Origin: Deltaproteobacteria bacterium
Lineage (GTDB): Bacteria; Myxococcota_A; UBA796; GCA-2862545
DNA: 38,653 nucleotides
NCBI GenBank assembly: GCA_011376105.1
Contig: DRPG01000192.1
Span: 1 to 38,653, forward strand
Direction of reading: 5' to 3'
The notes under the pieces are model-generated. The model made no database searches. It had not been told where the DNA came from and worked only from the letters and a program-made list of their open reading frames with translations. Numbering within the stretch: position 1 is the first letter of the stretch; each line of letters starts with the position of its first letter. A program made the translations under genes and the position numbers. Below are positions 1 through 38,653 of the stretch, one piece after another.

Positions 1-1631
1 CAGAGCAGCTCGCCACCCTCGAGGGCTCGCTCCAGGCGCTGGCGGGCCTCCTCGGGCTTGGCTCCACCCACAAGCTGCATCCCGACGAGCTCCCCCACCG
101 CCCGGGGGCTGAGGGCCAGCGGCTCGCCAGCCGCGAGGGTGCGCCGACAGCGAGCGTCAAGCCCCGACAGGGCCGCCTCCGCCACCCTGGGCTCCACCCC
201 CGCAGCGATCAGCGCCTGCTGGATCGAGCTGAGGATCGTCTCGAGCTGCTCGGTGGAGTCGATCAGGGTGAGCCCCCCCAGCGCCTGCAGGGGCCCCAGC
301 TCAAGGACCGGGGTGATCGGGGCGGGGTCGCTGCCCCGGGGCTCCAGCGGCAGCAGCTCAGGGCGCCCGGGGGCGGGCTGCGGAGCTGGATCGGGCACGA
401 TCCCGGCGGCCCCGGAGGGGGCGAGCTCGATCGGGGGAGGCTCCGGCGCCCCCCCGGGCTGTTCCTTGAGCTCCGCGAGGATCATCGGGAGCAGGATCGC
501 GAGGATCGCGAGGATCGCGGCCAGCATGGAGATCAACATCGCCGCGGAGCCCACGAGGGCCACGAACATGATCCAGTGGTATGGCGGGCTCTGGCTCGGC
601 TCGCGCTGGATGCTGGCCGAGGTGTGGAGGATCTCTGAGCTCAGGGTGGGGGTGGTGTTGGATGGATCTCCCCAGTCCATCGCGGGGAACACCTCTTGGA
701 TCCATGCTGGGGTGGCGCGGAGCCCCACTCCCATCCGCGCCAGCTCGTCGGACAGATCGGAGGCGAGCTCGGCGGCGCTCTGGTAGCGATGAGCGGGATC
801 GGCCTGCAGGGACCGATCAAGGATCACCTCCATGCGCTGCGAGATCTCGATCATGGAGGAAGCACGGGGATAGCGGCCCGCGATCAGATCCGCCATCAGG
901 TTCCCGCCGTCGAACGGCATCCGGCGGGTGAGGATCCGATATAGCAGGACCCCGACCGAGAACACGTCGGCGCGGCCATCGGGTTGTTGCCCCATGAGGA
1001 TCTCGGGGGCCATATAGGGGAGCTTGCCCTTGAGGATCCCGACCTGGCTCCCGCTCTGATCGCCGTCGAAGCGGGCGACCCCAAAGTCGATCAGCTTGGC
1101 CACGCCGGTCTGAGCGTCGATCAAGATGTTGTTGCTCGACACGTCCTGGTGGACCAATCCGCAGGGGGCTCCGTTGAGCTGGAGCCGGTGGGCGTAGTCC
1201 AGCCCATGGCAGATCTGCATCACCGCGTGCAGCATGGGGCCGGTCTGGTAGCGACGCTCCCGGCTGGCCCGGCCCTGGAGGGCACCGAGGGTGGGGCCGT
1301 GCACATACTCCATCACCAGGAAGGGGATCCCCCCCAGCGAGCGGAACTCGAACACCTGGACGATGTTGGGGTGTTGTAGCTGGGCGAGGAGCTTGGCCTC
1401 CTCGATGAACATCTGCTCGTACTCGGGCAGCCCCACCCACCGGCTGTGCAGGACCTTGATCACCAGGTGTTTCTCGAAGCCCTGGGGGCCCCGGCGGACG
1501 CACTGGTAGACCTCGGCCATGCCCCCCTCGGCCAGGGGGCGCACGATCTCGTAGGGCCCCAGCATGCTCCCGGCGATGCGTGGGGGGCGAGGCCGAGCGG
1601 TGGAGGAGATCCTGCTTCCGAAGATACCCAC
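1..1631 (-). CDS. Hanks-type Ser/Thr protein kinase with a transmembrane segment (3' end off the window)
   Basis: Probable membrane-anchored protein kinase. Numbering from the GTG at 1631, the Gly-loop variant AEGGMAEVY lies near residues 34-42, the ATP-binding Lys in VIKVL near 59, then a catalytic loop HQDVSSNN (the usual HRD Arg is Gln), LIDFGVA and PYMAPEIL, so the kinase core is complete. A strongly hydrophobic Ile/Leu/Ala-rich segment follows at about 490-590 (minus strand), then a Pro-rich linker and a region with no domain I recognise that runs off the left edge. I chose GTG 1631 because GGGGAGGG lies 8 nt upstream; an ATG at 1565 is possible but its purine run abuts the codon. HQD instead of HRD suggests activation-loop control unlike RD kinases, but that is family inference. 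The signal it senses cannot be read from this sequence. Confidence 0.88.
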   Translation of the reverse strand, partial: MGIFGSRISSTARPRPPRIAGSMLGPYEIVRPLAEGGMAEVYQCVRRGPQGFEKHLVIKVLHSRWVGLPEYEQMFIEEAKLLAQLQHPNIVQVFEFRSLGGIPFLVMEYVHGPTLGALQGRASRERRYQTGPMLHAVMQICHGLDYAHRLQLNGAPCGLVHQDVSSNNILIDAQTGVAKLIDFGVARFDGDQSGSQVGILKGKLPYMAPEILMGQQPDGRADVFSVGVLLYRILTRRMPFDGGNLMADLIAGRYPRASSMIEISQRMEVILDRSLQADPAHRYQSAAELASDLSDELARMGVGLRATPAWIQEVFPAMDWGDPSNTTPTLSSEILHTSASIQREPSQSPPYHWIMFVALVGSAAMLISMLAAILAILAILLPMILAELKEQPGGAPEPPPIELAPSGAAGIVPDPAPQPAPGRPELLPLEPRGSDPAPITPVLELGPLQALGGLTLIDSTEQLETILSSIQQALIAAGVEPRVAEAALSGLDARCRRTLAAGEPLALSPRAVGELVGMQLVGGAKPEEARQRLERALEGGELL

Positions 1632-1996
1632 AGCGTCAACCCTCCCCGGCGCGGATCAAGGCCTCAGCTCCACTGAGAGGCGATCCACCCGGGAGATGAG
1701 CCCCGGGATCCTGGGCCAAGACCACCAGAGATCTGGTGGGTCGTGGCGCTCACCTCCCAGCGGTGCGGGGCTGTGGGTTCGATGGCTCAAGGGGTGATCC
1801 GCAGGCGGAGGGCTCGAGGGAGCTGGACCCGTGGGAGGGTGATCGGGTGACAGCGAGGCAGAGTGACCTACCAGGATATATCCCGTGTGCCTGCGCGGGA
1901 TCCATGAGATGACCCACAGGACCCTCTCGAGTCCTCTTTGGATCCATCCTAGAGACAAGACACAGATCTTGCCAGATCGCTGGAGGACGGATCCGC
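1632..1996. other. Intergenic region upstream of the kinase gene
   Basis: No convincing gene in these 365 bases. The reading frames that cross it have no coherent protein character. It holds a 10-bp palindrome GGATATATCC at 1874-1883, the only AT-rich spot, which could be part of a promoter for the minus-strand kinase gene. By hand count it also has about 11 GATC sites, as dense as the coding regions. Confidence 0.5.
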
Positions 1997-3136
1997 TCAG
2001 GAGCGGTTCGGGATCGGGATCCACTCCACGATGCGCAGCGCCGCGGCGAACGCAGCGAAGCAGGCCAGGGCGAGCTGGCGTCGGTTACTGTGCCCACACA
2101 CCTCCCACAGTTCCCTCCGGGAGGTCCGGAAGGGTTCCCGGGCGATGAGGACCCCCTGTCGAGCCAGGGCCTGGTTCATCGGGTTGAAGCTCAGGGGCTG
2201 CACCGCACTCTCGAGCCAGTCAGAGCCCAGCGGGGCGTTCTCTCCCTGCCAGCCCGCCAGGTGGACCCGGATCGTGGTGAGGACCTCCTCGTCAAACAAG
2301 GCCCGGGCGGTGTGCTGGATCGTGGACCAGGTGAACAGGATCGAGTTGGCCACCTCCGCCCGGTTGCGGGTGATCCGGAGGATGTTCGCGCGATCGGCGT
2401 CGCTCATCATGATCGGGTGGGTGAGCCCCGAGGCCAGCACCTGGCGCAGGGCGATCCCGGCCTCCAAGTTCTGCTCTAGGCCCATGATGCGCACCAGGGC
2501 AAAGCGGGGTGGGCTCGACAGGGCCACAGTCTTGATCCCCTGGCGCATCCCCACTGAGTCGAGGACCCGGTTGAGGTAGTGGAAGCCCAGGGCGAGGACC
2601 GCGGCGTCGGAGACCTCATCGGCGGTGAAGGGGGGGTTGCGGATGATCGCGGCCGCGGGCTCCTTGGTCGACAGCCCGAAGCGGGCCAGATCCCGCTCCC
2701 TGGGATCGGCGATCTTCTCGGGGCGCCGATCGAGGATCAGCCCGGCGACTCCAGGCTCAGACGAGGTCCGCACCAGGGTGGAGTGGATGTTGATGCAGAA
2801 GTGGCAGCGGTTGGACACCGAGATCGCGGTCGCGATGATCTCCCGCTCGGCCCGGGTCAGCGCGGCACCGTCTCCGAGGTAGGTGTCGCGAAAGATCACG
2901 AAGAAGGCGGCGTACAGGTGCGCGTCATGGCGATGTATGCCCGCGGGGAAGTCACCCCAGGCGGTGAGGCCCAGCTCCCGGTAGGCCGCCCGGAACGCCA
3001 CGCGGAACAGCGGGAGATCTGAGCGTGGGACCTCGGGGGGGTACTTTCGGAGCTGCATCACGAGCGCCACGAACACCACAGCGCTCAGCAACAACAGAAA
3101 CAAGCAGATTGCGAGGGCTATCAGTAGTAATTCCAC
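1997..3136 (-). CDS. Membrane-anchored AhpD/carboxymuconolactone-decarboxylase-like protein
   Basis: A 379-residue protein with one N-terminal hydrophobic segment (about residues 2-30, starting VELLLIALAICLFLLLL) followed by a CMD/AhpD-like domain. The AhpD signature CHFCINIH, with the redox Cys pair and downstream His, sits near residue 110 in the context SVSNRCHFCINIH. In AhpD and its relatives this CxxC-xxx-H motif gives peroxidase or disulfide-reductase activity, so a thiol-dependent role at the membrane is likely. The second half (about residues 200-379) looks like another helical CMD-like bundle without the cysteines. I chose GTG 3136 because AGGAAGGG lies about 6 nt upstream and the hydrophobic segment follows directly; a longer in-frame extension to 3244 has no such support and overlaps the terminator hairpin upstream. 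Specific substrate unknown. Confidence 0.8.
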   Translation of the reverse strand: MELLLIALAICLFLLLLSAVVFVALVMQLRKYPPEVPRSDLPLFRVAFRAAYRELGLTAWGDFPAGIHRHDAHLYAAFFVIFRDTYLGDGAALTRAEREIIATAISVSNRCHFCINIHSTLVRTSSEPGVAGLILDRRPEKIADPRERDLARFGLSTKEPAAAIIRNPPFTADEVSDAAVLALGFHYLNRVLDSVGMRQGIKTVALSSPPRFALVRIMGLEQNLEAGIALRQVLASGLTHPIMMSDADRANILRITRNRAEVANSILFTWSTIQHTARALFDEEVLTTIRVHLAGWQGENAPLGSDWLESAVQPLSFNPMNQALARQGVLIAREPFRTSRRELWEVCGHSNRRQLALACFAAFAAALRIVEWIPIPNRS

Positions 3137-3191
3137 GCATTCCCTTCCTGTACTCTCTTCAACTCTAGCAGGAACAGAGGCGACGCCAACG

Positions 3192-3235
3192 CCAAAAGCA
3201 ACAGAGGGCGCCCGTCCGGGATCGGACGGGCGCCC
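3192..3235 (-). terminator. Rho-independent terminator after the ASPIC/UnbV gene
   Basis: A perfect 13-bp inverted repeat (3206-3218 with 3223-3235, arms GGGCGCCCGTCCG and its complement) encloses a GGAT loop. On the minus strand it is followed by a T-rich stretch (TCTGTTGCTTTTGG). It lies 21 bases past the stop of the gene ending at 3257 and upstream of the AhpD-like start, so it separates the two genes. Confidence 0.85.
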
Positions 3236-3256
3236 TCGGCTCACGGCGGGAGCGGA

Positions 3257-5494
3257 TCAGTGGTGCCCGGAGTCGTCGTCGCTGCTGGAGTCGTCGTCGC
3301 TGCTGGAGTCGTCGTCGCTGCTGGAGTCGTCGTCGCTGCTGGAGTCGTCGTCGCTGCTGGAGTCGTCGTCTCCCCCCGATCCATCTCGATCGAAGTAGGC
3401 GGAGTAGGCGCTCGCGCCGAGCCGGATCGCGTGGGATGCTGAGATCTCCCCAGCCATCTCGAGATCGTACAGGGCGTCGCTGACGCACCAGGCGTAGCCG
3501 AAGAACCAGTCGTCGGTGTTCACGTCGCAGGGGATCTCGGGCAGGACTAGGTCTTCACCGGGAAACACGAAGTACAGGCGGTTGGTCACGCCCCCCTGCC
3601 AGAACACCTCCGCGGTGCCCCACCAGGCCAGATCCATGCCAAAGTGGACGTCGAGCTCGTCCTGGGACAGGAAGCTGCTGCCGCCGAGGACAGGCAAGCT
3701 CACGGTGTTGCCCCACGCCGGGGTGAAGCGGACCACCGCCCCGATCCCCGAGCGGTTGACCTGCCCACCGTCGGTGATCCCGACGCTGCCGACCGTGTCG
3801 AAGGACACTGAGCCCTTGCCGGAGCCCTGGTTGATCTCCACTGTCATGTCGCCCGGCGACGTCTCGAAGCCGTTCCAGCTGGCCAGGCCGGTGCTTGGAT
3901 CGATGTCGACCATGAAGTTGAACACCGCGGTGGCATCGAGATCCACACCATACTGGGCTGGGCTGATGATCGAGGGATGGCCCGGCTCGACCAGGTGGTT
4001 GGCTGCGGTGACCACGTCGACATAGCCGTCGTTGTCGAGATCCCCCGTCGCGACCCCCTGGGTGCCCCGGGTGGTGTAGTCCCCCCGGAACGCAGTAAGG
4101 TTCTCGGTAAAGGTCGCGCTGCAGCCGTTGTTCTCGAGCACGACCCCGGGGTTGTCGTGGGTGATGTTGACGTTGATGTCCATCGTGCCGTGGTACAGCA
4201 GATCGAGATCCCCGTCGTTGTCGAGATCCTCCATCCCGTTGCCCCAGCCGAACACCGTGGGGAAGCCCACACCTGGATCCGAGTAGGTCCCGTCTCCGTT
4301 GTTGAGGATGTGGCGGGTGGCCAGCGCCCCCTCGTAGTAGGGAACCGGGGGGATCCCGTTGGTGGGGGCCATGTAGTCGCCCAGGTTCGAGGCGAACAGA
4401 TCGAGGGTGCCGTTGCAGTCGAGATCACCGACGCTCAGCGCCATCCAGGCTGCGGCCGAGGTGTCGTTGATGTGGATGGGAGCGTTGGTGAACGAGCCGG
4501 TGCCATCGTTGAGGAAGGTCTGCAGGTAGCCTCGATCGAAGCCGCCCTCGGCGGCGTTGGGCAGCGCGGCCTGATCATCGCCGAAGAGGATGTCGGTGTC
4601 GCCATCTTGATCGATGTCGACCATCGTCACCGCCCAGGTGATCGTCGAGGGCTCGGGATCGACCGTACCCCCGAGGGTCATGTTGTGGATCCCCGAGGTC
4701 GCGGACACGTCCGAGAAGGCCAGCCCGCCGTCGTTGTGGAACAGCTGGTTGCGATCGTTGAGCGCGTAGGGCTCGGCCACCAGGGCGAACAGGGTGCTCA
4801 GATCGAAGAGGTTGGCGACGGCAATGTCCAGCAGACCGTCTCCGTCGATGTCCCCCATCGAGCAGCTGATGTGGGAGGCCGTGCCCCCCTCCGCGCCGTG
4901 ATTTGCCACCTCGACAAACATGCCCCCCTGGTTCTCGTACAGACGGTTGCCCGCCTCCCGCCCCAGCACGTACAGGTCGTCGTCTCCGTCGTTGTCGAGA
5001 TCGCCGAAGCACACGCCGTTGCTGTCGAGATCGGTGGCGTCTGCCCCCGAGGTGGCGCTGAGATCCAGGAAGCCAAAGGTCCCGGTCTCGACCAGCTGGT
5101 TGCTGTACAGGACGTTGGCCGCCCCGGGACCGTTGGTGGCGTAGATGTCCAGATCGCCGTCGTTGTCGTGATCCAACAGGGCGACACCTGCGAAGCCACC
5201 GGTGCGGTGGGGGAGGCCGAAGAAGCCCTCCATCGGGATCGGGGTGGTCTGGGAGTCTACGTACCCAGCGAGCAGATCGGCGTAGGATGCTGACCGCGCC
5301 CGCTCATAGGTGATGCCCATCGCTGGATCGTCCGCGACGTTCGAGAACGCGACGGGCCCCGCCCACGCAGGGCCTGCGAGGGAGACCAGGACGGCCATCT
5401 TGCACAGAATCTTGTGTTGTGGTACGGGCAGACCCCGCCTGATCACAGGCTGAGAGCGCTCCTCTCGGAACATCACAGGCAAAACTTCACACAT
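3257..5494 (-). CDS. Secreted FG-GAP/VCBS repeat protein with ASPIC/UnbV domain and Asp/Ser-rich tail
   Basis: A 745-residue exported protein. After a signal-like segment ending PAWAG (hydrophobic core MAVLVSLAGPAWA) it has at least seven Ca2+-binding DxDxDG-type loops of an FG-GAP/VCBS beta-propeller: DHDNDGDLD, DLDNDGDDD, DIDGDGLLD, DIDQDGDTD, DLDCNGTLD, DLDNDGDLD and DLDNDGYVD. Next comes an ASPIC/UnbV-type domain (NRSGIGAVVRF, then FLSQDELDVHFGMD). The protein ends in a low-complexity (DDDSSS)n tail. Such CRTAC1-like proteins are extracellular and thought to bind Ca2+ and mediate adhesion. Start: ATG 5494 has GGAGGG 5 nt upstream; the ATG at 5398 would leave a signal peptide too short, and an in-frame extension to 5749 lacks protein character. 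The long basic n-region (VIRRGLPVPQHK) is unusual but acceptable. Confidence 0.87.
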   Translation of the reverse strand: MCEVLPVMFREERSQPVIRRGLPVPQHKILCKMAVLVSLAGPAWAGPVAFSNVADDPAMGITYERARSASYADLLAGYVDSQTTPIPMEGFFGLPHRTGGFAGVALLDHDNDGDLDIYATNGPGAANVLYSNQLVETGTFGFLDLSATSGADATDLDSNGVCFGDLDNDGDDDLYVLGREAGNRLYENQGGMFVEVANHGAEGGTASHISCSMGDIDGDGLLDIAVANLFDLSTLFALVAEPYALNDRNQLFHNDGGLAFSDVSATSGIHNMTLGGTVDPEPSTITWAVTMVDIDQDGDTDILFGDDQAALPNAAEGGFDRGYLQTFLNDGTGSFTNAPIHINDTSAAAWMALSVGDLDCNGTLDLFASNLGDYMAPTNGIPPVPYYEGALATRHILNNGDGTYSDPGVGFPTVFGWGNGMEDLDNDGDLDLLYHGTMDINVNITHDNPGVVLENNGCSATFTENLTAFRGDYTTRGTQGVATGDLDNDGYVDVVTAANHLVEPGHPSIISPAQYGVDLDATAVFNFMVDIDPSTGLASWNGFETSPGDMTVEINQGSGKGSVSFDTVGSVGITDGGQVNRSGIGAVVRFTPAWGNTVSLPVLGGSSFLSQDELDVHFGMDLAWWGTAEVFWQGGVTNRLYFVFPGEDLVLPEIPCDVNTDDWFFGYAWCVSDALYDLEMAGEISASHAIRLGASAYSAYFDRDGSGGDDDSSSDDDSSSDDDSSSDDDSSSDDDSSSDDDSGHH
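3269..3370. repeat. 18-bp tandem repeat encoding the (DDDSSS)n tail
   Basis: Five exact copies of GGAGTCGTCGTCGCTGCT (units starting at 3269, 3287, 3305, 3323 and 3341) plus 12 bases of a sixth. The unit is a multiple of 3, so copy changes would keep the frame of the Asp/Ser tail. It lies directly before the stop codon. Confidence 0.97.
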
Positions 5495-6183
5495 CGGTCC
5501 CTCCGGCACGGGGCACGCCCTTGTCGTTAGGTGGTCAATCCCCGGGATCAGCGTAGCGCATCCCGTAAGAATGCCACCTGCGGCAAGCGACGCGATCTTG
5601 GCCCTGTGTGTGCGATCAGGCGGCACTGAGGGGGGATCCGGGGTCTTGGTTACACAAGGGTTACATCTCGAGCAAATGCAGACTCTCCAGGCGATCGGCT
5701 CTGCTCGTGGCCCACGAGAGCCCTCCAACGGTTGACTTCTTGCAGACACGGATCGGTGCAGGGTCGGGTAGAGGGCGTCGGGCCAGCTGGAGACGGTGCC
5801 CAGACCACACGCGCTCCGGAGTTCACCCTGATTCGTAAGCCCTCTGCAAACTTGTTATCCATGCAAGATCACTAGGCTCCCTCCTCCGCGACGAAGGGTA
5901 CCAAGAGGGCGTCGTGACCATGTGGAGGCCCCGGAGACAGGGCACGATCTTTCCTCTGGGGCCATCCGACGCGGGACTAAAGCGGATCTGTCTGACGACT
6001 TCCTGTGTCCCCCGCTGTGCGGAGCCCTGCACCGGGCCCAGCCCAACGTCCACACCGGGCCCAGCAGGATCGGAGGTGGAGAGCGGCGCCACGTCCGCGT
6101 CGGAGCGCAGCGCCGGCCCCCTGAGGCGGGGGTCAGCCCCTGGGGGATCAGAGTGATAGCCCTGCAGATCAGAGGAGGGCTGT
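5495..6183. other. Divergent intergenic region between the ASPIC/UnbV gene and the 6184 gene
   Basis: No gene is supported in these 689 bases: all reading frames through it are Arg/Pro/Ser-rich and lack initiation sites. It must hold the promoters of two genes transcribed outward. A slightly AT-rich patch lies at about 5830-5880. A pair of 7-bp direct repeats at 5648-5665 is listed separately. The ribosome binding site GGAGGG for the plus-strand gene is at 6174-6179. Confidence 0.55.
5648..5665. promoter_or_regulatory. Candidate 11-bp-period operator (two GGTTACA repeats)
   Basis: GGTTACA occurs at 5648-5654 and again at 5659-5665, exactly one helical turn apart; on the minus strand this reads TGTAACC-CTTG-TGTAACC. 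Two 7-bp direct half-sites with a 4-bp gap is the layout bound by OmpR/PhoB-family dimers. It lies about 155 bases upstream of the ASPIC/UnbV start. The binding protein is unknown, so the role is inference. Confidence 0.4.
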
Positions 6184-6885
6184 GTGTCACGACCCATGGA
6201 CACCCGCTGGATCCAGGCCTCACGCTCCGGTGCCTGCCTGTTCCTCGTGCTGATCGAGGCCGATGACGCTCTCGAGATCGATCTGTCCGAGCCCCTGGCC
6301 TCCACCACCTGGGGCACCCTCGCGCGCCACTGCCAGGGCGCGTTCGAGCCCCTGGTCCAGCCCTGCGGCGCCATGGCCGGGGTGATCGAGGACCCCGGGG
6401 CGGCCGGCGCCATCGCGCTCACCGCTCAGCAGCTCCACCGCCAGGCCCAGCAGCTGTGGCCGCAGCGCCTCGACGTCGACTGGGGCGATCTCGAGGCCCG
6501 TCGCCAGCGCACCGATCCAGGCCTGGCGGTGGCCTGGGGGGAGGCCGCGGATCGAGCCCCCGAGGCCGAGGAGGGGGAGATCCTGTCCCGCACCCTCGCG
6601 CTCCTCGGCCCGGAGCTGAGCGCGGTGGGTCCTCCGCTGGAGCTCGATCCAGGTGAAGACGACGGGGCGGTGATCCTCGACGAGCTCACCCGGCTGCTGA
6701 GCGCCGAGCAGGCGCTGTGGCGGGGGCACCGGCGCCGGGGCGCACGCCGGGTCGGCCTGGCCCGACACGCCCTCGGGGCGCTGGCCTCCGAGGGCTGGAG
6801 CGCAGCAGGGCACGCCGGCGACGCGTCGCTGCGGCGGGCCGCGGGCGCCCTGGTCCTGCTCCAGCAGGGCTGGCCTCCGGGCTAA
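6184..6885 (+). CDS. Hypothetical protein, 233 aa
   Basis: I do not recognise a family. The frame is open for 233 codons with strong G/C preference at third positions, as in the neighbours. GTG 6184 is chosen because GGAGGG at 6174-6179 lies 4 nt upstream; ATG 6196 (MDTRWIQ) is the alternative. The product is soluble-looking, rich in Ala, Leu, Glu and Gln, with probable helices (AQQLHRQAQQLW, LDELTRLLSAEQALW) and an Arg-rich patch near residues 185-195 (WRGHRRRGARR). No signal peptide, membrane segment or obvious catalytic motif. It is convergent with the small lipoprotein gene, and a short GC-rich inverted repeat CCGGG-CTAAG-CCCGG overlaps its stop codon. Confidence 0.7.
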   Translation: MSRPMDTRWIQASRSGACLFLVLIEADDALEIDLSEPLASTTWGTLARHCQGAFEPLVQPCGAMAGVIEDPGAAGAIALTAQQLHRQAQQLWPQRLDVDWGDLEARRQRTDPGLAVAWGEAADRAPEAEEGEILSRTLALLGPELSAVGPPLELDPGEDDGAVILDELTRLLSAEQALWRGHRRRGARRVGLARHALGALASEGWSAAGHAGDASLRRAAGALVLLQQGWPPG

Positions 6886-7030
6886 GCCCGGGCTCAGGAG
6901 CGTCGCTCCGTCTCCCTGGCCCGGACGCCCCCGGAGCGCCCGCGTCCGGCGGACCGGCCCCAGCGATCAAGCCGGGAGCTGAGCCCGGATCGGGAGCGAG
7001 CCCACACACAGCCCGCTCCACCGACCGGTG

Positions 7031-7264
7031 CTACATCTCGCTCATGCCGGTGTCGTCTTCCATGCAGTGCCCCATGGCCGCGTGGCAGGTGCCGCCCTCG
7101 ACGTCGCAGTCTGCGTCCTGGACCAGCACGCCGCCGGTGCAGACCATCAAGAGCTGGCCATCACAGCTGAACGCGCCCTCAGTGTCGCAGGAGGTCTCCT
7201 TGCCATCGCCGCCGCAGGCGGCGGCGAGAGCGATCAAGCAAGACATCATCAGGCTTCGGGACAT
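7031..7264 (-). CDS. Small Cys-rich lipoprotein, 77 aa
   Basis: Short exported lipoprotein: MSRSLMMSCLIALAAACGG has a basic start, a hydrophobic core and a lipobox LAAAC with the lipidation Cys at residue 17. The mature part is about 60 residues, acidic, with five further cysteines in a spread pattern (SCDT, FSCDG, VCTGG, DCDV, TCHAA, HCMED), suggesting a small disulfide-stabilised fold of the kind common in Myxococcota envelope proteins. ATG 7264 has GGAGAG 6 nt upstream. The residues after the lipobox are Gly-Gly-Asp; an Asp near the mature N-terminus can favour the inner membrane in enterics, but that rule is not established here. Function unknown. Confidence 0.8.
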   Translation of the reverse strand: MSRSLMMSCLIALAAACGGDGKETSCDTEGAFSCDGQLLMVCTGGVLVQDADCDVEGGTCHAAMGHCMEDDTGMSEM

Positions 7265-7361
7265 GGAGAACTCTCCGCTCGGGGTCGACTTCAGGATCGC
7301 TCACAGGGCTGGAGCCCCATGGCGTCTACATCACGCACGTAGTGCGCAGACACCGCCGGGT

Positions 7362-7469
7362 GGATCCATCGACACCGAAAATTCACAACCCGCTGGCCCT
7401 CAGGTGCGAGACCGCTGGCAGCAGCTCCTGGGGATCCATCGACACCGAAAACTCACGACCCGCTGGCCC
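7362..7469. repeat. Pair of 38-bp direct repeats (70-bp period)
   Basis: Copy 1 spans 7362-7399 and copy 2 spans 7432-7469, with 36 of 38 positions identical (differences within ATTCACAACC versus ACTCACGACC). Each begins GGATCCATCGACACCGAAAA. The 32-base spacer between them shows no similarity to the repeat. The pair lies between the lipoprotein start and the DUF1858-like stop. Confidence 0.95.
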
Positions 7470-7505
7470 CCGGGGAGCTCCGGAGCTCCCCGGAGCTCCC
7501 CGGGG
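7468..7505. terminator. GC-rich stem-loop after the DUF1858-like gene
   Basis: A perfect 14-bp inverted repeat, CCCCGGGGAGCTCC at 7468-7481 and its complement at 7492-7505, encloses a 10-base loop that itself repeats GGAGCTCCCC. Any one of several hairpins can form, because the middle also contains a 24-bp perfect palindrome (7470-7493). It begins 15 bases after the stop at 7520 (minus strand). No T-run follows, so a classical intrinsic terminator is only a possibility. Confidence 0.5.
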
Positions 7506-7519
7506 CTGGGGCCCTGTGG

Positions 7520-7819
7520 CTACGCCGCGACCGGCTCGATGGCCTCAGGCCCGGTCCAGTCTCCGGGATCGATCACCCACACAGAGGGGGGCGCCTCGTG
7601 GATCACGTCCTCGAACCATGCGCTCGGGCCGACCCCCTGGATCGCGTGCAGGTTGCTCACCAGCTCCTCTGCGTCGAGGGCGTGCAGCCAGCACAGCACC
7701 CGCAGGGGGGAGCGGAGGCTCGAGGCCTCCACCGACACCCCGTGCCACGCCAGCACCTCTTCCGCCCACGGATGACGAGCGATGATCTCGCCGATCGGCA
7801 TGTCCAGGTGGATCAGCAC
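7520..7819 (-). CDS. Small DUF1858-like protein, 99 aa
   Basis: The N-terminal half reads like a DUF1858 domain, the short helical module found in ScdA-like and hybrid-cluster-associated proteins: DMPIGEIIARHPWAEEVLAWHGVSV followed by a helical stretch ending ALDAEELVSNLHAI. Typical members carry a conserved Cys pair after the GM motif; here that position reads GVSVEASS and the only Cys is in VLCWLHAL, so a metal- or NO-related role is doubtful. The C-terminal 40 residues (GPSAWFEDVIHEAPPSVWVIDP) match nothing I know. GTG 7819 is well supported by a perfect AAGGAGGT 6 nt upstream; longer in-frame upstream sequence is not needed. It stands alone, with a stem-loop downstream. Confidence 0.72.
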   Translation of the reverse strand: MLIHLDMPIGEIIARHPWAEEVLAWHGVSVEASSLRSPLRVLCWLHALDAEELVSNLHAIQGVGPSAWFEDVIHEAPPSVWVIDPGDWTGPEAIEPVAA

Positions 7820-8387: not shown

Positions 8388-8462
8388 CCGGGCCCGGGCC
8401 TGCTCTGGACGCCCCCTCCCCCCGGGCCCGGGCCTGCTCTGGACGCCCCCTCCCCCCGGGCC
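8388..8462. repeat. 34-bp tandem repeat, 2.2 copies
   Basis: Exact copies at 8388-8421 and 8422-8455, followed by the first 7 bases of a third. The unit starts CCGGGCCCGGGCCTGCTCTG. At 34 bp it is not a multiple of 3, so it is not selected as coding sequence. Confidence 0.95.
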
Positions 8463-29445: not shown

Positions 29446-29447
29446 CC

Positions 29448-31523: not shown

Positions 31524-31585
31524 GGGCCCAGACTACCACCCACGGATCGGTGGTGCAGGGATCCCTCAGTGCTGGGTAAGGCTGC

Positions 31586-33949
31586 ATGACCCTCGAAGAC
31601 GCCACCGCTCATGGGCTCGACTGGCCCTTTGTCGTAGAACACTGGGCCCGGTGCGCCCGCACCTCGATGGGTGGGGCCGCGGTCCGGAGCATCCAGCCCC
31701 TGGACAGTCGCGGGGCCGTCCTCGAGGCGATGGACGCCACCGACGAGGTCCTGTGTCTCGAAGATCAGGGCGCCGATCTGCCGATCGGAGCGGTGCAGGA
31801 CGCCCAGCAGCTCGTCCAGCGGGCCGAGAAGGGCCAGGTGCTGGAGGGGGCGGAGCTGCTGAGCGCCGCCCGCTCCCTCAACGCGCTGATCCAGGTCCAC
31901 AGGGCCCTGGATCGGGCCCGGGAGGACGCCCCCACCCTCGCCCGCTGGGCCGCCGCGATCGAGCTCGACGGGCTGGTGGTCGACGATCTGCTCAGCTCGT
32001 TCGATCCCACCGGACGCCTGTCAGGCTCGCGCTATCCAGAGCTCGACGAGCTGCGGCGCGCGATCGCCCGGCTGCACGGGGAGGTCCGTGACACCCTCGA
32101 TCGCATGGTTCGTGGCGAGGAGCTGGGCGACGATCTCCTCCAGGACAGGTTCTGGACCGTCCGCGACGATCGCTATGTGCTGCCGATCAAGAGCCACGCC
32201 AAGCGCTGGGACCTGGGGATCGTGCACGGCACCAGCGGGACGGGGCGCACGGTGTTCGTGGAGCCCCACGCGGTGGTGGCGCTGAACAACCAGCTCCGCC
32301 TCGCGGAGGGGCGCCTGCTCGCGGCTGAGCACGCGATCCTGACCCAGCTGTCCGCTGAGCTGGGCACCTTCGCCGATCGGATCGGGCCGGCGACCCGGGC
32401 CGCGATCCAGATCGACGTGGCCTGTGCCCGGGCTGGGCTGTGCCGTCGCCTCTCCGCCACCCGGCCCCAGGTCGGCGAGGGGGATCGGCTGCACGTCCGG
32501 GAGGGGCGCCACCCGGTGCTGGTGCTCCGTGGGGTCGAGGTGGTCGCCAACGATCTAGAGCTCGACGGGAGTCACCCCGTGCTGGTCCTGTCCGGTCCCA
32601 ACGCAGGCGGCAAGACGGTGGCGCTCAAGACCCTGGGGCTGTGCGCCGAGCTGGTGCGCCATGGCTGTCACGTGCCCACCGCCGAGGGCTCCCGGGTGGA
32701 TCGCTTCTCCGCGGTGCTGGCCTCCATCGGCGATCAGCAGACCGTCGAGGGCGATCTCTCCTCGTTCTCGGCCCACCTGGTCACCCTCAAGGCGATGATC
32801 GACGCGGCCGCTCCGGGCCAGCTGCTGCTGCTCGACGAGGTGGCCAGCGGAACCGATCCAGCCCAGGGGGCGGCGCTGGCCCAGGCGGTGTGCGAGCACC
32901 TCGCCCAGGCAGGCCCCCGGGTGGTGGTCACCACCCACTTTGCCGCCCTGAAGGCCATGGGCGCCGCCGATCCCCGGTTCTCCGTCGCGGCGGTGCAGTA
33001 CACCGAGGGTCGACCCACCTACCGGGTGATCCAGGGCGCCACGGGAGAGAGCCACGCGCTGGACATCGCAGGCCGGGTGGGCCTCCCACGCTCGATCCTC
33101 GCCAGGGCCGAGGCGGCGCTGGGGGAGCAGCAGGCCGAGCTGGGGCGCCTGCTGTCGGCGCTGGAGGCCGAGCGCGCCACCGCGTCCAGGGCCACAGCCG
33201 AGGTCCAGCGCCTGGCGGCGGAGGCCGAGGCCCAGGCCAGGAGCCTGGAGCAGCGCGAGGCGCGGGTCGCCGCCCGGGCGAAGGAGCTGGAGGAGGCCGC
33301 CGCGGCCCAGTTCCTCGGGCGCCTCCGCGAGGCTGAGCGGGCGATCGGCCAGGTGGTCGCCGAGCTCCAGCGCAGCCCGAGCCACCGGGGGGTCGAGGCC
33401 GCCCGGGCCACCCTCGCCGCCCTCGGCCAGCTCGCCCCCAACACCGAGGCGCAGACGCAGGCGCAGACGCAGGCGCCCGACACGATCCGCGTCGGGGAGC
33501 AGGTCCGGCTGCGTCGGGCCTCGGGCACCGGCGAGGTGATCTCGGTGTCGGGGAGCACGGCCCAGGTGCGGGTGGGCGGGCTGATGGTGAAGGCCAAGCT
33601 CTCGGATCTGACCCGAACGAGCCGGGCCCCCCAGCGGCCCCAAATCCGCAGCGGGGTCCAGCTCGCGCCGCGCTCCAGGCTGCTCGACGAGGCCGTCCGG
33701 GTGCCGACGAACACCCTCGACATGCGGGGCATGCGGGTCGACGAGGGGCAGGCGGCGGCCGAGCAGTTCTTTGACAAGGCCATGCGCAGCGGCTGGGACA
33801 CGGTGTTCCTCCTCCATGGCCACGGCACCGGGGCCCTCAAGGACGGGCTGCGGGGCTGGCTGCGGAGCAGCGGCTACGTCTCCGACTGGGTGCCCGCCAG
33901 CGAGGAGCAGGGCGGAGACGCGTTCACCGTGGTGGAGCTCGCGGGGTAG
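31586..33949 (+). CDS. mutS2: MutS2 family ATPase/endonuclease with Smr domain
   Basis: A 787-residue MutS2 protein. The clamp and core regions lead to an ABC-type ATPase: Walker A SGPNAGGKT (near residue 334), the signature QQTVEGDLSSFSAHL, Walker B LLLLDEVASGTDPAQG, and the H-loop TTHFAALK. A coiled coil of about 150 residues follows. The KOW-like segment DTIRVGEQVRLRRASGTGEV and the C-terminal Smr domain (LDMRGMRVDEG near 711, HGHGTGALKDGLRGWL near 745) complete the family layout. MutS2 resolves DNA junctions in some bacteria and in others (RqcU) rescues collided ribosomes through the Smr nuclease, where HGxG is active; both are possible here. The usual LDLRG is LDMRG. ATG 31586 has AAGG upstream. 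Divergent from the beta-helix gene. Confidence 0.96.
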   Translation: MTLEDATAHGLDWPFVVEHWARCARTSMGGAAVRSIQPLDSRGAVLEAMDATDEVLCLEDQGADLPIGAVQDAQQLVQRAEKGQVLEGAELLSAARSLNALIQVHRALDRAREDAPTLARWAAAIELDGLVVDDLLSSFDPTGRLSGSRYPELDELRRAIARLHGEVRDTLDRMVRGEELGDDLLQDRFWTVRDDRYVLPIKSHAKRWDLGIVHGTSGTGRTVFVEPHAVVALNNQLRLAEGRLLAAEHAILTQLSAELGTFADRIGPATRAAIQIDVACARAGLCRRLSATRPQVGEGDRLHVREGRHPVLVLRGVEVVANDLELDGSHPVLVLSGPNAGGKTVALKTLGLCAELVRHGCHVPTAEGSRVDRFSAVLASIGDQQTVEGDLSSFSAHLVTLKAMIDAAAPGQLLLLDEVASGTDPAQGAALAQAVCEHLAQAGPRVVVTTHFAALKAMGAADPRFSVAAVQYTEGRPTYRVIQGATGESHALDIAGRVGLPRSILARAEAALGEQQAELGRLLSALEAERATASRATAEVQRLAAEAEAQARSLEQREARVAARAKELEEAAAAQFLGRLREAERAIGQVVAELQRSPSHRGVEAARATLAALGQLAPNTEAQTQAQTQAPDTIRVGEQVRLRRASGTGEVISVSGSTAQVRVGGLMVKAKLSDLTRTSRAPQRPQIRSGVQLAPRSRLLDEAVRVPTNTLDMRGMRVDEGQAAAEQFFDKAMRSGWDTVFLLHGHGTGALKDGLRGWLRSSGYVSDWVPASEEQGGDAFTVVELAG

Positions 33950-33963
33950 CGGGCGCCGCGGTG

Positions 33964-34035
33964 GACGATCCAAGCAGGCCAGACGATCCGAGCGGACCAG
34001 ACGATCTCAGCGGGCTAGACGATCCGAGCAGCCCC
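33964..34035. repeat. 18-bp tandem repeat, 4 imperfect copies
   Basis: Units starting at 33964, 33982, 34000 and 34018 share GACGATC at the start and (A/G)AGC(A/G)G further on. The array fills the gap after mutS2 and runs into the 3' end of the next gene, so it also sets that gene's last residues and stop. Confidence 0.85.
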
Positions 34036-34690
34036 GCGGCGTGCGCCTGCGCCCCAGCAGGGCCAGGGCCAGGGCCAGGACCCAGGCTCTCTGTGCCGAT
34101 CCAAGCTGGCCACAGCTGCAGCCATCGGCCGCCACGATCGTGGCCGGGCCCCGGATCGGCACAGAGGCATCGGCCTCGACGATCTCCCCGCCGGTGTCGA
34201 GCACCACCCCCGGGCAGGGATCGCCGGACTCGATCACCAGATCCACGTAGGATCGGCTCTCTCCGGGGGAGATCCCCTGGAGATGGATCAGCTCGATCGC
34301 GACCTGCGCTCCACATAGCTCCTCGACCCCGAAGCCGGTCCCTGTCCAATGATCGGCGTGGGGCAAGGTGACGCGATCGGCGCCCCCGATCTGGAACGCC
34401 AGGGTCGCAGACGTCGCCTCGGGGATCAGGTAGGAGAAGTTGATCTCGGTGCGCCGCACGGTGAAGGGCTCGGATCGTAGCCAGAGCTCTCGTCGGCCCT
34501 CCTCTCCATCGATCTCGAACAGGGCGACGTGCTCCCCCGACGGGCTGCCTGCCCCCATCCGGAAGTCAGAGACGTGCTGGCGCGCGTCGTTGTTCTGTGA
34601 CCACCCCTCGAGGCCATCCTCGAAGTCCCCGTTGAGGGGGTTCTGAGCTACAGCGAGGGCACACATCCAGAGCATCGGGACTTGTACCAC
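34007..34690 (-). CDS. Exported protein with MYXO-CTERM-type tail, 227 aa
   Basis: Secreted, surface-sorted protein of no family I know. A signal-like start (MVQVPMLWMCALAVAQNP) is followed by a jelly-roll-like beta domain that opens NGDFEDGLEGWSQN, the usual beginning of carbohydrate-binding or discoidin-like domains (NGDFEdG..gW), and continues with FTVRRTEINFSYLIPEA and TSATLAFQIGGADRV. The C-terminus DGCSCGQLGSAQRAWVLALA, hydrophobic stretch and GRRRTPRG is a MYXO-CTERM sorting signal, so it may stay in the outer membrane or be released. GTG 34690 has GAGG close upstream; ATG 34675 is an alternative. The last codons lie in an 18-bp tandem repeat. It lies 179 bases after the beta-propeller lipoprotein on the same strand. 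Confidence 0.8.
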   Translation of the reverse strand: MVQVPMLWMCALAVAQNPLNGDFEDGLEGWSQNNDARQHVSDFRMGAGSPSGEHVALFEIDGEEGRRELWLRSEPFTVRRTEINFSYLIPEATSATLAFQIGGADRVTLPHADHWTGTGFGVEELCGAQVAIELIHLQGISPGESRSYVDLVIESGDPCPGVVLDTGGEIVEADASVPIRGPATIVAADGCSCGQLGSAQRAWVLALALALLGRRRTPRGCSDRLAR

Positions 34691-34869
34691 GATCCTCGGC
34701 TCTTGGGCCCATGTCCGGACGGAGCGCAGCGCTCACCTCACGGTGACGTGCACCGCCCCCATCGAGGAGCGCCGTGATCCGATCCATCCGAGCGCACAGC
34801 GCGCTGGAGGGGTGGTGACGATCTGGATCGCGGCGCGGCGGCCAGCCGACGCTCAGGGCGGCCCGGCGC

Positions 34870-36333
34870 TCAGCGTGTGGTGGCGGGGGGTGGGACCGCC
34901 TCGTCCCCGAGGCTCAGGGTGCGCACGTAGATGTCCTTGTTGACGTTGCGGCTGTCGGTCCAGGCCACGTGCATCGTGCCGCCGATCACCGCGATGTTGA
35001 GATCCTCGCGCTCGGTCAGCCCATCGGGCCAGGCATCGATCCGGAGCTCGGACTCGAGGAAGCCCCCGCTGGCGTCTACATAGTTGTAGTACAGATCGGA
35101 GTTCAGCGAGTCTGGATCGATCTCCAGCGCCAGCTGATCTCCCCGCCAGGCGACCACCGGGCCGTTGGGGCCCCACGCGAGCTGGGGATCCAGCGCGTTG
35201 GAGGAGCCGGCGCCGGTCCCGGTGTCGATCCGCTCTTCCTCCTCGCCGGGGATCCCGTCCTGGATCGTGCGGTGGTAGATGTCCATCGCGCTGTTCCGGC
35301 CGTCGCTCCACACCACGTCGAAGGTGCCGTAGCCCCGGCTGTAGCAGCGGGGTTTTTCGCTGTCGAAGGCGCCGGGTGTGCCCGAGTCGAGCCGCACCGC
35401 CTCATCGAGCCAGGTCCGACCCCCATCGGACGAGGTGTTGAACAGGATGTCGGTGCCCTCACCGGTCTCAGCGTCGCCGTTGCGTAGATCCTGCCAGACC
35501 ACGAGCAGATCCTCGCGGTTGTCGGTGCACAGCTGGGGGGCGAAGCTGTCGCTCGCGCCGACGTCGTCCCCTAGATCGAGGCGGGCCTCGCCGTTTGTAA
35601 AGTTTCGCCCTCCGGTGTCGCTGTAGGCAAAGTAGATGTCGCCCTCGTTGTTGCGGGTGTCCTCCCAGGTGACCCACACCTCGTCGCGCTCACCGAGGGC
35701 CACCTGGGGCCGGCCCGACCAGCCCGAGCCGGGCTGATCCGCCTCGATCCGCTGTGGGATCTGCCAGCTCTGCCCAAGATCGTCGCTGACACTCACAAAG
35801 ATGTCGTAGCTGCCGTAGCTATCGCTGGACCAGGTCACCGCGACACGATCCCCGAACAGCGAGATCCGGGGGCTCAGCTCCTCGGTGAAGCCCTCTTCGT
35901 CTCCGCTGATCAGGCGATCTTCTTCGGGGAACTCGGTGCCGTCGATCGAGTGGCTGAAGTAGATGTTGCCCCGCCCCAGGGTGCCGTCGCGATCGTCGCT
36001 CCACACGACGAACACGCCGTCGGCGGAGCAGGTCAGCTCGGGTGAGTCGACCAGGCCGTCGCCCCGGTTGATCCGGGCTGGTGCCTCGAGCCAGGTCTGG
36101 CCCAGATCCCCCGAGCGGTTCAGCCATAGATCCCTGCGCCCACTCGCCACCCGATCGTCGACCCACAGCACATAGACCGAGCTCTCGTGGGCACACATGC
36201 GGGTGCCGCTGCTCTCGGGATCGTTGAGATCCGAGCCCCCGTCGATCCGGGTGTCGTCGATCCAGGGGGGAGGCTCCTCCGGCTTGCAGCCGGTGACAGC
36301 GAACAGCAGGAGCACAGCTGAGGCGCGGGACAT
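34870..36333 (-). CDS. Sialidase-like beta-propeller lipoprotein
   Basis: A 487-residue exported lipoprotein. MSRASAVLLLFAVTGCKPEE has a lipobox VTGC, lipidation Cys at residue 17. The body is a run of BNR/Asp-box-type propeller repeats: for example SGDLGQTW, SDDLGQSWQ and SSDGGRTW, each an SxDxGxTW box, and strands such as VYVLWVDDR, VFVVWSDDR, VWVTWEDTR and LLVVWQDLR that recur at about 50-70 residues. At least six blades are visible. Asp-box propellers occur in sialidases and in non-catalytic surface proteins; the sialidase Arg triad and catalytic Tyr/Glu were not identified, so an enzymatic role is unproved. ATG 36333 has GGAGG 4 nt upstream. It follows the DUF1552 gene by 43 bases. Confidence 0.88.
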   Translation of the reverse strand: MSRASAVLLLFAVTGCKPEEPPPWIDDTRIDGGSDLNDPESSGTRMCAHESSVYVLWVDDRVASGRRDLWLNRSGDLGQTWLEAPARINRGDGLVDSPELTCSADGVFVVWSDDRDGTLGRGNIYFSHSIDGTEFPEEDRLISGDEEGFTEELSPRISLFGDRVAVTWSSDSYGSYDIFVSVSDDLGQSWQIPQRIEADQPGSGWSGRPQVALGERDEVWVTWEDTRNNEGDIYFAYSDTGGRNFTNGEARLDLGDDVGASDSFAPQLCTDNREDLLVVWQDLRNGDAETGEGTDILFNTSSDGGRTWLDEAVRLDSGTPGAFDSEKPRCYSRGYGTFDVVWSDGRNSAMDIYHRTIQDGIPGEEEERIDTGTGAGSSNALDPQLAWGPNGPVVAWRGDQLALEIDPDSLNSDLYYNYVDASGGFLESELRIDAWPDGLTEREDLNIAVIGGTMHVAWTDSRNVNKDIYVRTLSLGDEAVPPPATTR

Positions 36334-36376
36334 GGATCCTCCATCTGGGGGTGATGCCCTGCACACACCCCCATCT

Positions 36377-37738
36377 TCACCTCATCATGTCCGACAGGAC
36401 CCCGCCCTGTAGTGAAGGATCGCCGAAGTCGTCGATCCATCCACCGTCGGGTCTGCGCAGCCCGGTGGCGTTGATCAGGGAGTTGAGCAGGCGGTTGTGG
36501 GTCTCGTCGCCGACGTCCACGTAGCGCCCGACGTCCAGCGACCCATCCCCCCGGCCCGCGATCACCCACGGGATGTTCCGGAAGGTGTGGGAGACGCCAG
36601 CTCCGAGATCGCTGGTATGGACCGCGGTGGTGGTCTCGAGCAGGCCATAGCTGTCGAGCCGCTCGAGGAGGTGGGCAAAGATCTGTAGGTGGAGCCGATC
36701 GATGCTGTGGTGCATGTCGACCGCGCCCACGATCTCGGCTGCGTTGGGATCGTCACCGTGATCATAGATCCGGTGGCTGATCATGTGGAAGTTTGGTAGT
36801 CGGGTGCCCCCGATCGTGTACTCGGTGCCGTCGTTGCCGTCACCGATCTGCAGGGTGGCGGCCCGGACGAAGTCACAGGAGAACGCCAGCGCGATCAGAT
36901 CGCAGTGCATCCGGGCCACGGTCACCCGGTTGTCGTTGAGGGTGCCCAGGCCCTGGATCGAGGCCATGGCCTGCTCTTCGTCCTCGGCGAGCCGACAGGC
37001 GAGGGTCTCGAGGTCTCGGATGCTCTGGAAGTGCAGCTCGAGGCGATCGCGATCGGCCCGGGAGAGATCGGTGCGGGCCATCAGGGCGCTCATCTGATCC
37101 CGGACCAGATCGTTGACCGAGCGGCGTCGATCTTCGAGCAGCGCGTCGAGCTGCTCGCCGCCCACCATGCGCAGGTAGGCGCTCCAGGGATCGTCCTCGG
37201 CGGGCCGCAGCGCCATCGCGCCGCGGTAGGACAGGACCTCCTCGAGGTAGCCGCCCCGCGGGCCGGTGTACAGCGTCAGCGGCTCGCCGCCGTTGTTGGG
37301 GAAGTGTCGGGCCACGTAGCTGTCGATCGACTCGCCCATGGCCAGCGACAGGTTGCCTGAGGGATCTTCGCTGACGGGGGCGGACGTCAGCACCTGGTTG
37401 CCTCCGCCGGAGTGGCCACAGCCGTTGGCGGGGAACGCAAACCGGGTGCCTCGCACCAGCAGCAGCCGATCGGCGTAGGCCGCCAGCTCGGACACCGCAC
37501 GATCCGCGTCGGTGCTGCTCAGCCCCGCGGAGGTCAGGGCCCCGGTCTGGCGGGGCCAGTAGCGCTCTGGCTCTCCGTTGTCGGCCTGCTGGACGCCGTT
37601 GGCCTGGCGTAGGAACACGATCGGGTGGGCCGGCGACGCGTCGGCACCCCGGGCCGGGCGGAGGGACTCGAGCAGGGGCAACGCGAGGACTGCGCCTCCG
37701 ATCCCCCGCAGCACACCACGACGACTGATCGGCCTCAC
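36377..37738 (-). CDS. DUF1552 family protein with Tat-type signal
   Basis: A 453-residue exported protein of the DUF1552 family, found mostly in Planctomycetes, Verrucomicrobia and Myxococcota next to DUF1592/DUF1588 cytochrome-like proteins. The N-terminus VRPISRRGVLRGIGGAVLALP has a twin-Arg and hydrophobic core. Family features include PIVFLRQANGV, NGCGHSGGGNQVLT, SIDSYVARHFPN, MDALLEDRRRSVNDLV-like helices and MHHSIDRLHLQIFAHLLERL. The biochemical role is not known. GTG 37738 has GGAGG 7 nt upstream, and its first bases overlap the stop of the preceding gene (GTGA), so the two are translated together; the pairing is the family's normal one. Confidence 0.9.
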   Translation of the reverse strand: MRPISRRGVLRGIGGAVLALPLLESLRPARGADASPAHPIVFLRQANGVQQADNGEPERYWPRQTGALTSAGLSSTDADRAVSELAAYADRLLLVRGTRFAFPANGCGHSGGGNQVLTSAPVSEDPSGNLSLAMGESIDSYVARHFPNNGGEPLTLYTGPRGGYLEEVLSYRGAMALRPAEDDPWSAYLRMVGGEQLDALLEDRRRSVNDLVRDQMSALMARTDLSRADRDRLELHFQSIRDLETLACRLAEDEEQAMASIQGLGTLNDNRVTVARMHCDLIALAFSCDFVRAATLQIGDGNDGTEYTIGGTRLPNFHMISHRIYDHGDDPNAAEIVGAVDMHHSIDRLHLQIFAHLLERLDSYGLLETTTAVHTSDLGAGVSHTFRNIPWVIAGRGDGSLDVGRYVDVGDETHNRLLNSLINATGLRRPDGGWIDDFGDPSLQGGVLSDMMR

Positions 37739-38653
37739 CTCGACACCTCCGGGGCCACAGGGGAGCGGTGGAGGAAGCTCCGGGTCGTGACCAGATCGAC
37801 GATCAGATCGCGGATGGCGCGATCTTCGCTCCGGGAGATCGTGGCCTGGCGCTCGAGCAGGGCGTCGTCCTGGACCGCCACCGCCCGGCCGTGCAGGAAC
37901 TCTAGCAGGTGCTGGCTGTAGCAGCGGTGCGCCTCGACGCTGTCGGCCACCACCGCAGCGAAGCCGACCGCGTCGGTCCACACCTGGGTCCGATCGTCGA
38001 TCGTCCAGCTGCCGCTCGCATCCACCGCCACACCGTTCTCAGTGGTGCGGTGCTTCCCCAGCGCGTCGTAGCCCTCGAACGCAAAGCCCGGGGGGTTGAT
38101 CAGGGTGCTGTGGCAGCCCTCCCCACAGGTCCCCTCGCCGGTGTGGGCGTCGACCAGCTCCCGGGTGGTGCGCACCCCGTCGGGGGGAGGCAGGGGCTCG
38201 ACGTTGTCGGGGGGAGGAGGCAGCGACTTGCACATCACGTCGCGGTTCACGAACACCCCCCGACGGATGGGGTTGTGGGTGGTGGAGTCGGCCTCTAACG
38301 CCAGGAACCCCGACAGAGTCAGCAGCCCGGCGCGCTGCCCTGGATCGAGATCGATCCGCTGCAACGCCGAGCCCTGCACCGAGACCCCATAGATCGGCCC
38401 CAGATCATCGTTGGCGAAGGTGTAGGGCGCGGTATACAGCGCGTGCACGCCCCCGCCGCCCCAGACGATGTCACCGACGAACGCCTGGACCTCAGCCTGC
38501 ATCGAGGCCGGGGTGGTGTCGGTGAACGCAGGGAACCGGCCTGGGTCCTTGAAGATGTTGCGATAGCTGTCGATGTGCAGCAGCTGCCGGTGGAGCTCAG
38601 CGACGGCCTCTTCTGCCCGGGGATCCGAGATCATCTCCTCGGCGATCGCACGC
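37735..38653 (-). CDS. DUF1592/DUF1588/DUF1585 protein (5' part off the window)
   Basis: The C-terminal 300 or so residues of a larger planctomycete-type cytochrome-c-related protein; the frame is open at the right edge, so the N-terminal part is missing. Visible are the DUF1588 segment RAGLLTLSGFLALEADSTTHNPIRRGVFVNRDVMCK (given here as positions about 38250-38330) and a single haem-type motif CGEGCH followed by STLINPPGFAFEGYDALGKHR. This is the CxxxCH-like centre of the family, where CxxCH is usual, so covalent haem binding may be altered or absent. A DUF1585-like end (LLEFLHGRAVAVQD, RDLIVDLVTTRSFLHR) closes the protein. It precedes and overlaps the DUF1552 gene by 4 bases. Confidence 0.88.
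   Translation of the reverse strand, partial: RAIAEEMISDPRAEEAVAELHRQLLHIDSYRNIFKDPGRFPAFTDTTPASMQAEVQAFVGDIVWGGGGVHALYTAPYTFANDDLGPIYGVSVQGSALQRIDLDPGQRAGLLTLSGFLALEADSTTHNPIRRGVFVNRDVMCKSLPPPPDNVEPLPPPDGVRTTRELVDAHTGEGTCGEGCHSTLINPPGFAFEGYDALGKHRTTENGVAVDASGSWTIDDRTQVWTDAVGFAAVVADSVEAHRCYSQHLLEFLHGRAVAVQDDALLERQATISRSEDRAIRDLIVDLVTTRSFLHRSPVAPEVSR

What the first reader, a model, noticed from the sequence alone, without database searches (positions are those of the whole stretch)
1..38653. GATC is strongly enriched and dictates synonymous Asp codon choice
Hand counts: about 24 GATC in the first 900 bases and about 11 in the 365-base intergenic region 1632-1996, versus one to three expected by composition. 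In mutS2 codons between 31586 and 32220, Asp followed by a codon beginning with C is GAT in 8 of 9 cases, and Asp followed by any other base is GAC in 14 of 14. A codon-independent pressure for GATC therefore acts in coding and noncoding DNA, comparable in kind to HIP1 (GCGATCGC) in cyanobacteria. A Dam-like methylation mark, a repair or restriction system, or chromosome organisation could explain it.
Basis: partly seen in the sequence, partly recalled or inferred. Interest (0 to 1): 0.75.

Follow-up and report, generated by a model that had tools for sequence, protein, structure and literature searches.

The report
GATC-saturated myxobacterial genome with MutH
This uncultured myxobacterium packs its whole genome with the four-letter word GATC, bending codon choice to do so, and it also carries the GATC-methylating and GATC-nicking repair enzymes of E. 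coli, a set that the reviews I could read confine to gammaproteobacteria.

Summary
The window has 684 GATC, 6.4 times the composition expectation; 436 kb of the same genome has 17.0 per kb, 6.2-fold. After synonymous-codon shuffling GATC is the most over-represented of 255 tetranucleotides. All three codon phases and intergenic DNA are affected. Asp before C is GAT in 89% of 2,855 cases; Asp before A or T is GAT in 2-4%. The favoured word is exactly GATC, with neutral flanks.

The predicted methylase exists: an E. coli-type Dam. I also found MutH with all catalytic residues, and a MutL that has lost its endonuclease motifs. Together these resemble E. coli methyl-directed mismatch repair, in Myxococcota. 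In 379 genomes of the phylum MutH occurs in 129, co-occurs with Dam (OR 6.1) and with degenerate MutL (OR 9.2).

The causal link is not shown. Dam and MutH are shared by relatives with half the density or less, and do not predict GATC density across the phylum. Codon choice ignores distance to other GATCs, so spacing selection is disfavoured. A per-site drive linked to Dam/MutH is my best but uncertain reading. GATC excess with an orphan Dam is known in haloarchaea; HIP1 is the cyanobacterial analogue.

The parts
1..38653 (.). Whole window: 684 GATC sites (17.7 per kb), a sample of a genome-wide property
3..1631 (-).
   Evidence: gene; Pfam Pkinase E 4.5e-36; 25 GATC in 1-900
1632..1996 (.). 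Intergenic stretch with 11 GATC in 365 bases (30 per kb; 1.0 expected by composition)
31586..33949 (+). mutS2 (MutS_V, MSSS and Smr domains; not the mismatch-repair MutS); Asp codons GAT 17/18 before C, GAC 28/28 otherwise

Best explanation
The genome is under a genome-wide, site-autonomous pressure to make and keep the exact sequence GATC, the target of its orphan Dam adenine methylase. The same genome encodes MutH, the nuclease that nicks the unmethylated strand of hemimethylated GATC in E. coli, and a MutL that has lost its own endonuclease motifs, so it very probably runs an E. coli-type methyl-directed mismatch repair. I think it most likely that the GATC excess is a by-product or target of that Dam-linked marking and repair: each site is gained or retained on its own account (a repair or mutation bias, or small additive selection per site), and synonymous codons are swept along. 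Shown here: the excess, its exactness, its presence in all codon phases and in intergenic DNA, its independence of spacing, and the presence of Dam, MutH and degenerate MutL genes. Inferred: that GATC is methylated in this organism, that MutH works with this MutL, and that either is the cause of the excess.
For: GATC genome-wide 17.0/kb, o/e 6.24; synonymous shuffle 1.77x, z 90, rank 1/255, by codon phase 2.18/2.62/1.54; Asp before C GAT 0.89 vs 0.02-0.15, four-fold third base G before ATC 0.81 vs 0.31 before other A-codons (0.69 before ATG), GGA/CGA before TC 0.23/0.21 vs 0.03-0.08; intergenic 13.1/kb, o/e 5.0, OR for GAT over GAC before C 7.0 (4.7-10.4); flanking bases neutral. Dam: E 1.3e-44 to E. 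coli Dam, aligned across the GATC-contacting segment. MutH: E 2.3e-61 to E. coli MutH, with the four catalytic positions kept in all eight aligned rows. MutL lacks DQHA and CxHGRP in the MutH+ genomes whose MutL could be read. Phylum: MutH with Dam OR 6.1, p 5e-12; MutH with degenerate MutL_C OR 9.2, p 5e-14, and 15/0/1/3 within the family. MutH, MutL and Dam contigs have the native GATC density, so they are unlikely to be contaminants.
Against: Dam and MutH presence does not predict GATC density in 379 genomes; Dam-negative genomes are if anything denser (uncorrected for GC content). The same-genus relative G001 has Dam, MutH and degenerate MutL yet 8.9 GATC/kb, and G002 has both enzymes and an excess in one codon phase only. 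G222 shows a strong excess with Dam but no MutH detected. The Asp-specific index is higher in MutH+Dam+ genomes but not significantly (p 0.066; 0.17 without density-picked genomes and G000). The preference is stronger in coding than in intergenic DNA, and strongest at the T of GATC, which a single uniform drive does not predict. Canonical MutS was not found in the recovered part of this 81%-complete genome. No methylation data exist here.
Confidence: 0.45

Rival explanations
1. Spacing selection: GATC sites are selected so that every mismatch has a hemimethylated GATC close by for MutH.
For: Dam, MutH and nuclease-less MutL are present; MutH acts at a GATC up to about 1 kb away in E. coli (PMC8744996).
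Against: Gaps follow a geometric distribution (CV 0.99; 47 gaps over 300 bp vs 41 expected), codon choice does not depend on distance to the nearest other GATC (within-gene r -0.03, 0.03, 0.04), and it does not fall where potential sites are dense. The mean gap of 58 bp is far below what repair needs.
Confidence: 0.1
2. Per-site selection for GATC as a binding or marking site for an unknown GATC or methyl-GATC reader (nucleoid protein, self-recognition for defence, cell-cycle control), independent of mismatch repair.
For: Site-autonomous, non-saturating preference in coding and noncoding DNA; a strong excess in G222 without detectable MutH; haloarchaea show GATC excess with an orphan Dam homologue (PMC6471742).
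Against: No reader identified; SeqA absent in 19 of 19 genomes. Selection on some 100,000 sites at once needs a large effective population size.
Confidence: 0.25
3. Directional cytosine deamination or a C-to-T repair bias at GACC/GGTC makes GATC.
For: The Asp effect (GACC to GATC) is the strongest (log odds ratio 4.68 against His/Asn/Tyr) and appears in G002, G014 and G015 with little or no excess in phase 2.
Against: It cannot make the CATC-to-GATC transversion bias (third base G 0.81 before ATC; CATC at 0.70 and AATC at 0.10 of shuffled expectation). No Vsr homologue found in this genome.
Confidence: 0.1
4. Ordinary base composition, codon usage or dinucleotide context of a GC-rich genome.
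For: GATC is commonly 2-3 times over composition in other genomes of the order and in other MutH-bearing contigs of high GC.
Against: Synonymous shuffling keeps proteins and per-gene codon counts and still leaves 1.77x, rank 1/255; His, Asn and Tyr codons before C do not follow Asp.
Confidence: 0.03

Closest known systems
E. coli Dam / MutS / MutL / MutH methyl-directed mismatch repair
   Same: Dam homologue with the same target-contacting segment, MutH with the same catalytic residues, MutL without DQHA or CxHGRP motifs.
   Different: Host is a myxobacterial lineage; its MutH branches outside the main gammaproteobacterial clade (99/94); no SeqA; one GATC per 58 bp, against one per 256 bp in random sequence of even composition. 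Papers state that MutH is confined to some gammaproteobacteria (PMC4390886, PMC8744996).
GATC over-representation with orphan Dam homologues in Halobacteria (PMC6471742)
   Same: Orphan Dam-type methylase together with a genome-wide excess of its GATC target.
   Different: The passages I read do not describe MutH or reading-frame-resolved codon effects; densities were not compared quantitatively here.
HIP1 (GCGATCGC) in cyanobacteria (PMC4390886)
   Same: Iterated palindrome containing GATC, linked to orphan methylases; one proposed cause is biased mismatch repair.
   Different: HIP1 is an 8-mer at roughly one per 1,000 nt; here the word is a 4-mer with neutral flanks at one per 58 nt, and a real MutH is present.

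Membership tests
Dam (DNA adenine methylase, GATC) | Homology to E. coli Dam over the whole protein, with LKWAGGK and DPPY motifs | tested here: met
   E 1.3e-44 over residues 17-292; LKWAGGK and CDPPY
Dam (DNA adenine methylase, GATC) | Residues that contact GATC in E. coli Dam (K9, Y119, N120, L122, R124, P134, Y138; numbering from my own knowledge) | tested here: met
   [25 protein letters not shown] aligned to [25 protein letters not shown]
Dam (DNA adenine methylase, GATC) | Methylates A in GATC in the cell | not testable with these tools
   needs long-read methylation data or DpnI/MboI digestion
MutH | About 230 aa single-domain homologue of E. coli MutH with catalytic E56, D70, E77, K79 | tested here: met
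   226 aa, E 2.3e-61; E54 D68 E75 K77 invariant in all 8 aligned rows; single-domain size differs from the two-domain Sau3AI (own knowledge)
MutH | Nicks hemimethylated GATC when activated by MutS and MutL | not testable with these tools
   needs a nicking assay with purified proteins or rescue of an E. coli mutH deletion
Methyl-directed mismatch repair (E. coli type) | MutL without the DQHA(X)2E(X)4E endonuclease motif | tested here: met
   motif and CxHGRP absent in G000 and the other MutH+ relatives read, present in several MutH- relatives
Methyl-directed mismatch repair (E. coli type) | MutS present | tested here: inconclusive
   only MutS2 in the recovered 81% of this genome; canonical MutS in the same-genus relative G001
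HIP1 | Octamer GCGATCGC is the enriched unit | tested here: not met
   flanks of GATC match genome composition; the commonest 8-mers are not GCGATCGC
SeqA-type sequestration | SeqA homologue | tested here: not met
   0 of 19 genomes, E. coli control positive

The most novel reading that the evidence does not exclude
Methyl-directed mismatch repair itself acts as a ratchet: in a lineage relying on Dam and MutH, repair or methylation at near-miss sites favours changes that create GATC, so the repair system has written its own recognition word through the genome and overridden codon choice. This would be the biased-repair model proposed for HIP1, realised with the actual MutH enzyme.
Probability: 0.15. 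Interest if true: 0.88.

Novelty: new variant of a known kind. Interest (0 to 1): 0.7.

Why it matters
MutH in about a third of the sampled genomes of a second phylum, often with Dam and sometimes with a nuclease-less MutL, contradicts the common statement that methyl-directed mismatch repair is a gammaproteobacterial speciality, and offers further losses of the MutL nuclease to study. The extreme GATC load in this genome makes an old question testable: whether a methylase target becomes over-represented because it is useful or because repair or methylation biases mutation towards it. It also warns that synonymous codon choice in such genomes reports DNA-level pressure, not translation.

Tried and rejected
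Composition and Markov models: the second-order Markov model hides the effect because GAT and ATC occur mostly inside GATC. Spacing selection: tested by gap distribution, distance to nearest site and density of potential sites, no signal. Vsr-type repair: no Vsr found in this genome. SeqA: absent. A longer HIP1-like motif: flanks neutral. MutH as predictor of GATC density: no association in 379 genomes, nor in the same-genus comparisons visible in the tables. Divergent MutH in family f32, sought with a profile of myxobacterial MutH: nothing convincing. Presence/absence lists and pattern counts for 379 genomes were copied by hand into scripts. In alignment A2 the first three residues of row 4 were mistyped by me; the motif columns are unaffected and one search shows the DNA-derived sequence.

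Full report
What was checked. The window holds 684 GATC, 6.44 times composition. Bases 3-1631 are a kinase gene, so the first cluster is coding DNA.

Genome-wide. The window is contig C192 of a 6.7 Mb, 766-contig genome, 81% complete. In 436 kb sampled from it, GATC occurs 17.0 times per kb, 6.24 times composition; no other sampled genome of the order exceeds 10.7 per kb. I called genes with a simple codon-model script and shuffled synonymous codons within genes, which preserves proteins and codon counts. GATC remains 1.77-fold in excess (z 90), first of 255 tetranucleotides; by codon phase the ratios are 2.18, 2.62 and 1.54. Asp before C is GAT in 89% of 2,855 cases, against 4, 15 and 2% before A, G and T; His and Asn before C are 9 and 1%. 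Four-fold codons before ATC end in G in 81%, against 31% before other A-starting codons and 69% before ATG. Intergenic DNA has 13.1 GATC per kb, o/e 5.0, with an odds ratio of 7.0 for GAT over GAC before C. Bases flanking GATC follow composition, so the favoured word is the 4-mer itself.

How the pressure behaves. Gaps between sites are geometric (CV 0.99). The choice of a GATC-forming codon does not depend on the distance to the nearest other GATC and does not fall with the local number of potential sites. Both argue against selection for spacing or coverage. Near-miss words are depleted, including some one transversion away (CATC 0.70, AATC 0.10, GACC 0.73, TATC 0.25 of shuffled expectation), so deamination alone does not explain it. 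The effect is strongest at the T position and weaker between genes, which I cannot fully explain.

Genes for GATC. The genome encodes one strong Dam homologue (C693; E 2.6e-40 to the Pfam family; E 1.3e-44 to E. coli Dam with the GATC-contacting segment conserved). It encodes MutH on C534: 226 aa, E 2.3e-61 to E. coli MutH, catalytic positions E54, D68, E75 and K77 invariant in all eight aligned rows. Its MutL (C310) lacks the DQHA and CxHGRP motifs, as do the other MutH-positive relatives whose MutL was read, while several MutH-negative relatives keep them. All three contigs carry the native GATC density, so contamination is unlikely. Canonical MutS was not found in the recovered part of this genome but is present in the same-genus relative. 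SeqA and Vsr were not found in this genome.

Phylum-wide. The named relatives are Deltaproteobacteria and Myxococcota bins; I infer that the phylum is Myxococcota. MutH occurs in 129 of 379 sampled genomes, co-occurs with Dam (112/17/130/120, OR 6.1, p 5e-12) and with a degenerate MutL C-terminal domain (50/16/72/212, OR 9.2, p 5e-14). In the window's own family the MutL-MutH match is almost perfect (15/0/1/3). Many MutH-positive genomes in other families keep a strong MutL_C, so the exchange is not universal. In a tree of 44 MutH proteins the myxobacterial ones lie outside the main gammaproteobacterial clade (99/94), so a recent transfer from enterics is unlikely. These counts are not corrected for relatedness.

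Does Dam or MutH explain the excess? Not by presence alone. A triple-GATC pattern counted in 379 genomes ranks this genome first (9.3 per Mb), but density does not differ by MutH (p 0.11) and is higher in Dam-negative genomes (GC content not corrected). The codon-controlled index in 49 genomes again ranks this genome first, followed by G222 (Dam, no MutH), then G374 and G182, which have both genes; the Asp index is higher in MutH+Dam+ genomes but short of significance. The same-genus relative has all three genes and half the density. So Dam and MutH may be the context, but something further sets the strength.

What is known. GATC excess with an orphan Dam homologue is reported in Halobacteria (PMC6471742). 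HIP1 in cyanobacteria has been linked to GATC and CGATCG methylases, with a biased-repair model (PMC4390886). That paper says MutH is confined to a group of gammaproteobacteria, and a 2021 review says only a few gammaproteobacteria have methyl-directed repair (PMC8744996). No paper in the library holds the three terms MutH, Myxococcota and mismatch repair together; subscription literature was not searched.

Verdict. The cause of the excess remains open; a site-autonomous bias tied to Dam-directed marking is my leading but unproven explanation.

Noticed in passing
family f32 genomes (G222, G354, G368, G227, G310, G106, G101, G136, G237, G363, G365): MutL C-terminal domain degenerate and Dam-family methylase present, but no MutH detectable by Pfam or by a myxobacterial MutH profile; G222 has a strong GATC codon bias. 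A MutH analogue may be hidden there.
   Followed up: partly
family f16 genomes (G032, G036, G040, G049, G056, G073, G081, G122, G156 and others): MutH present without a PF02086 Dam match and with an intact-looking MutL C-terminal domain; another GATC methylase or another use of MutH is possible.
   Followed up: no
G016 (L079, L099): Opposite bias: GATC at 0.55 of shuffled expectation, low in all codon phases, although a strong Dam-family methylase is present; suggests a GATC restriction system or methyl-GATC avoidance.
   Followed up: no
G172, G343 (genus g105; L217-L220): 12-15 GATC per kb with neither Dam nor MutH found; much of it follows a general T-before-C codon context (His before C 0.53-0.75), so it is less GATC-specific.
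   Followed up: partly
L002 (G000:C133), 1435-1923 minus strand: Second, partial methylase-like protein (DPFMGSGS motif) in this genome; specificity unknown.
   Followed up: no
window 3257-5749 minus strand: FG-GAP/ASPIC-repeat protein ending in a repeated DDDSSS tail; MopE-type metal-binding and C-type lectin proteins are encoded elsewhere in the window.
   Followed up: no
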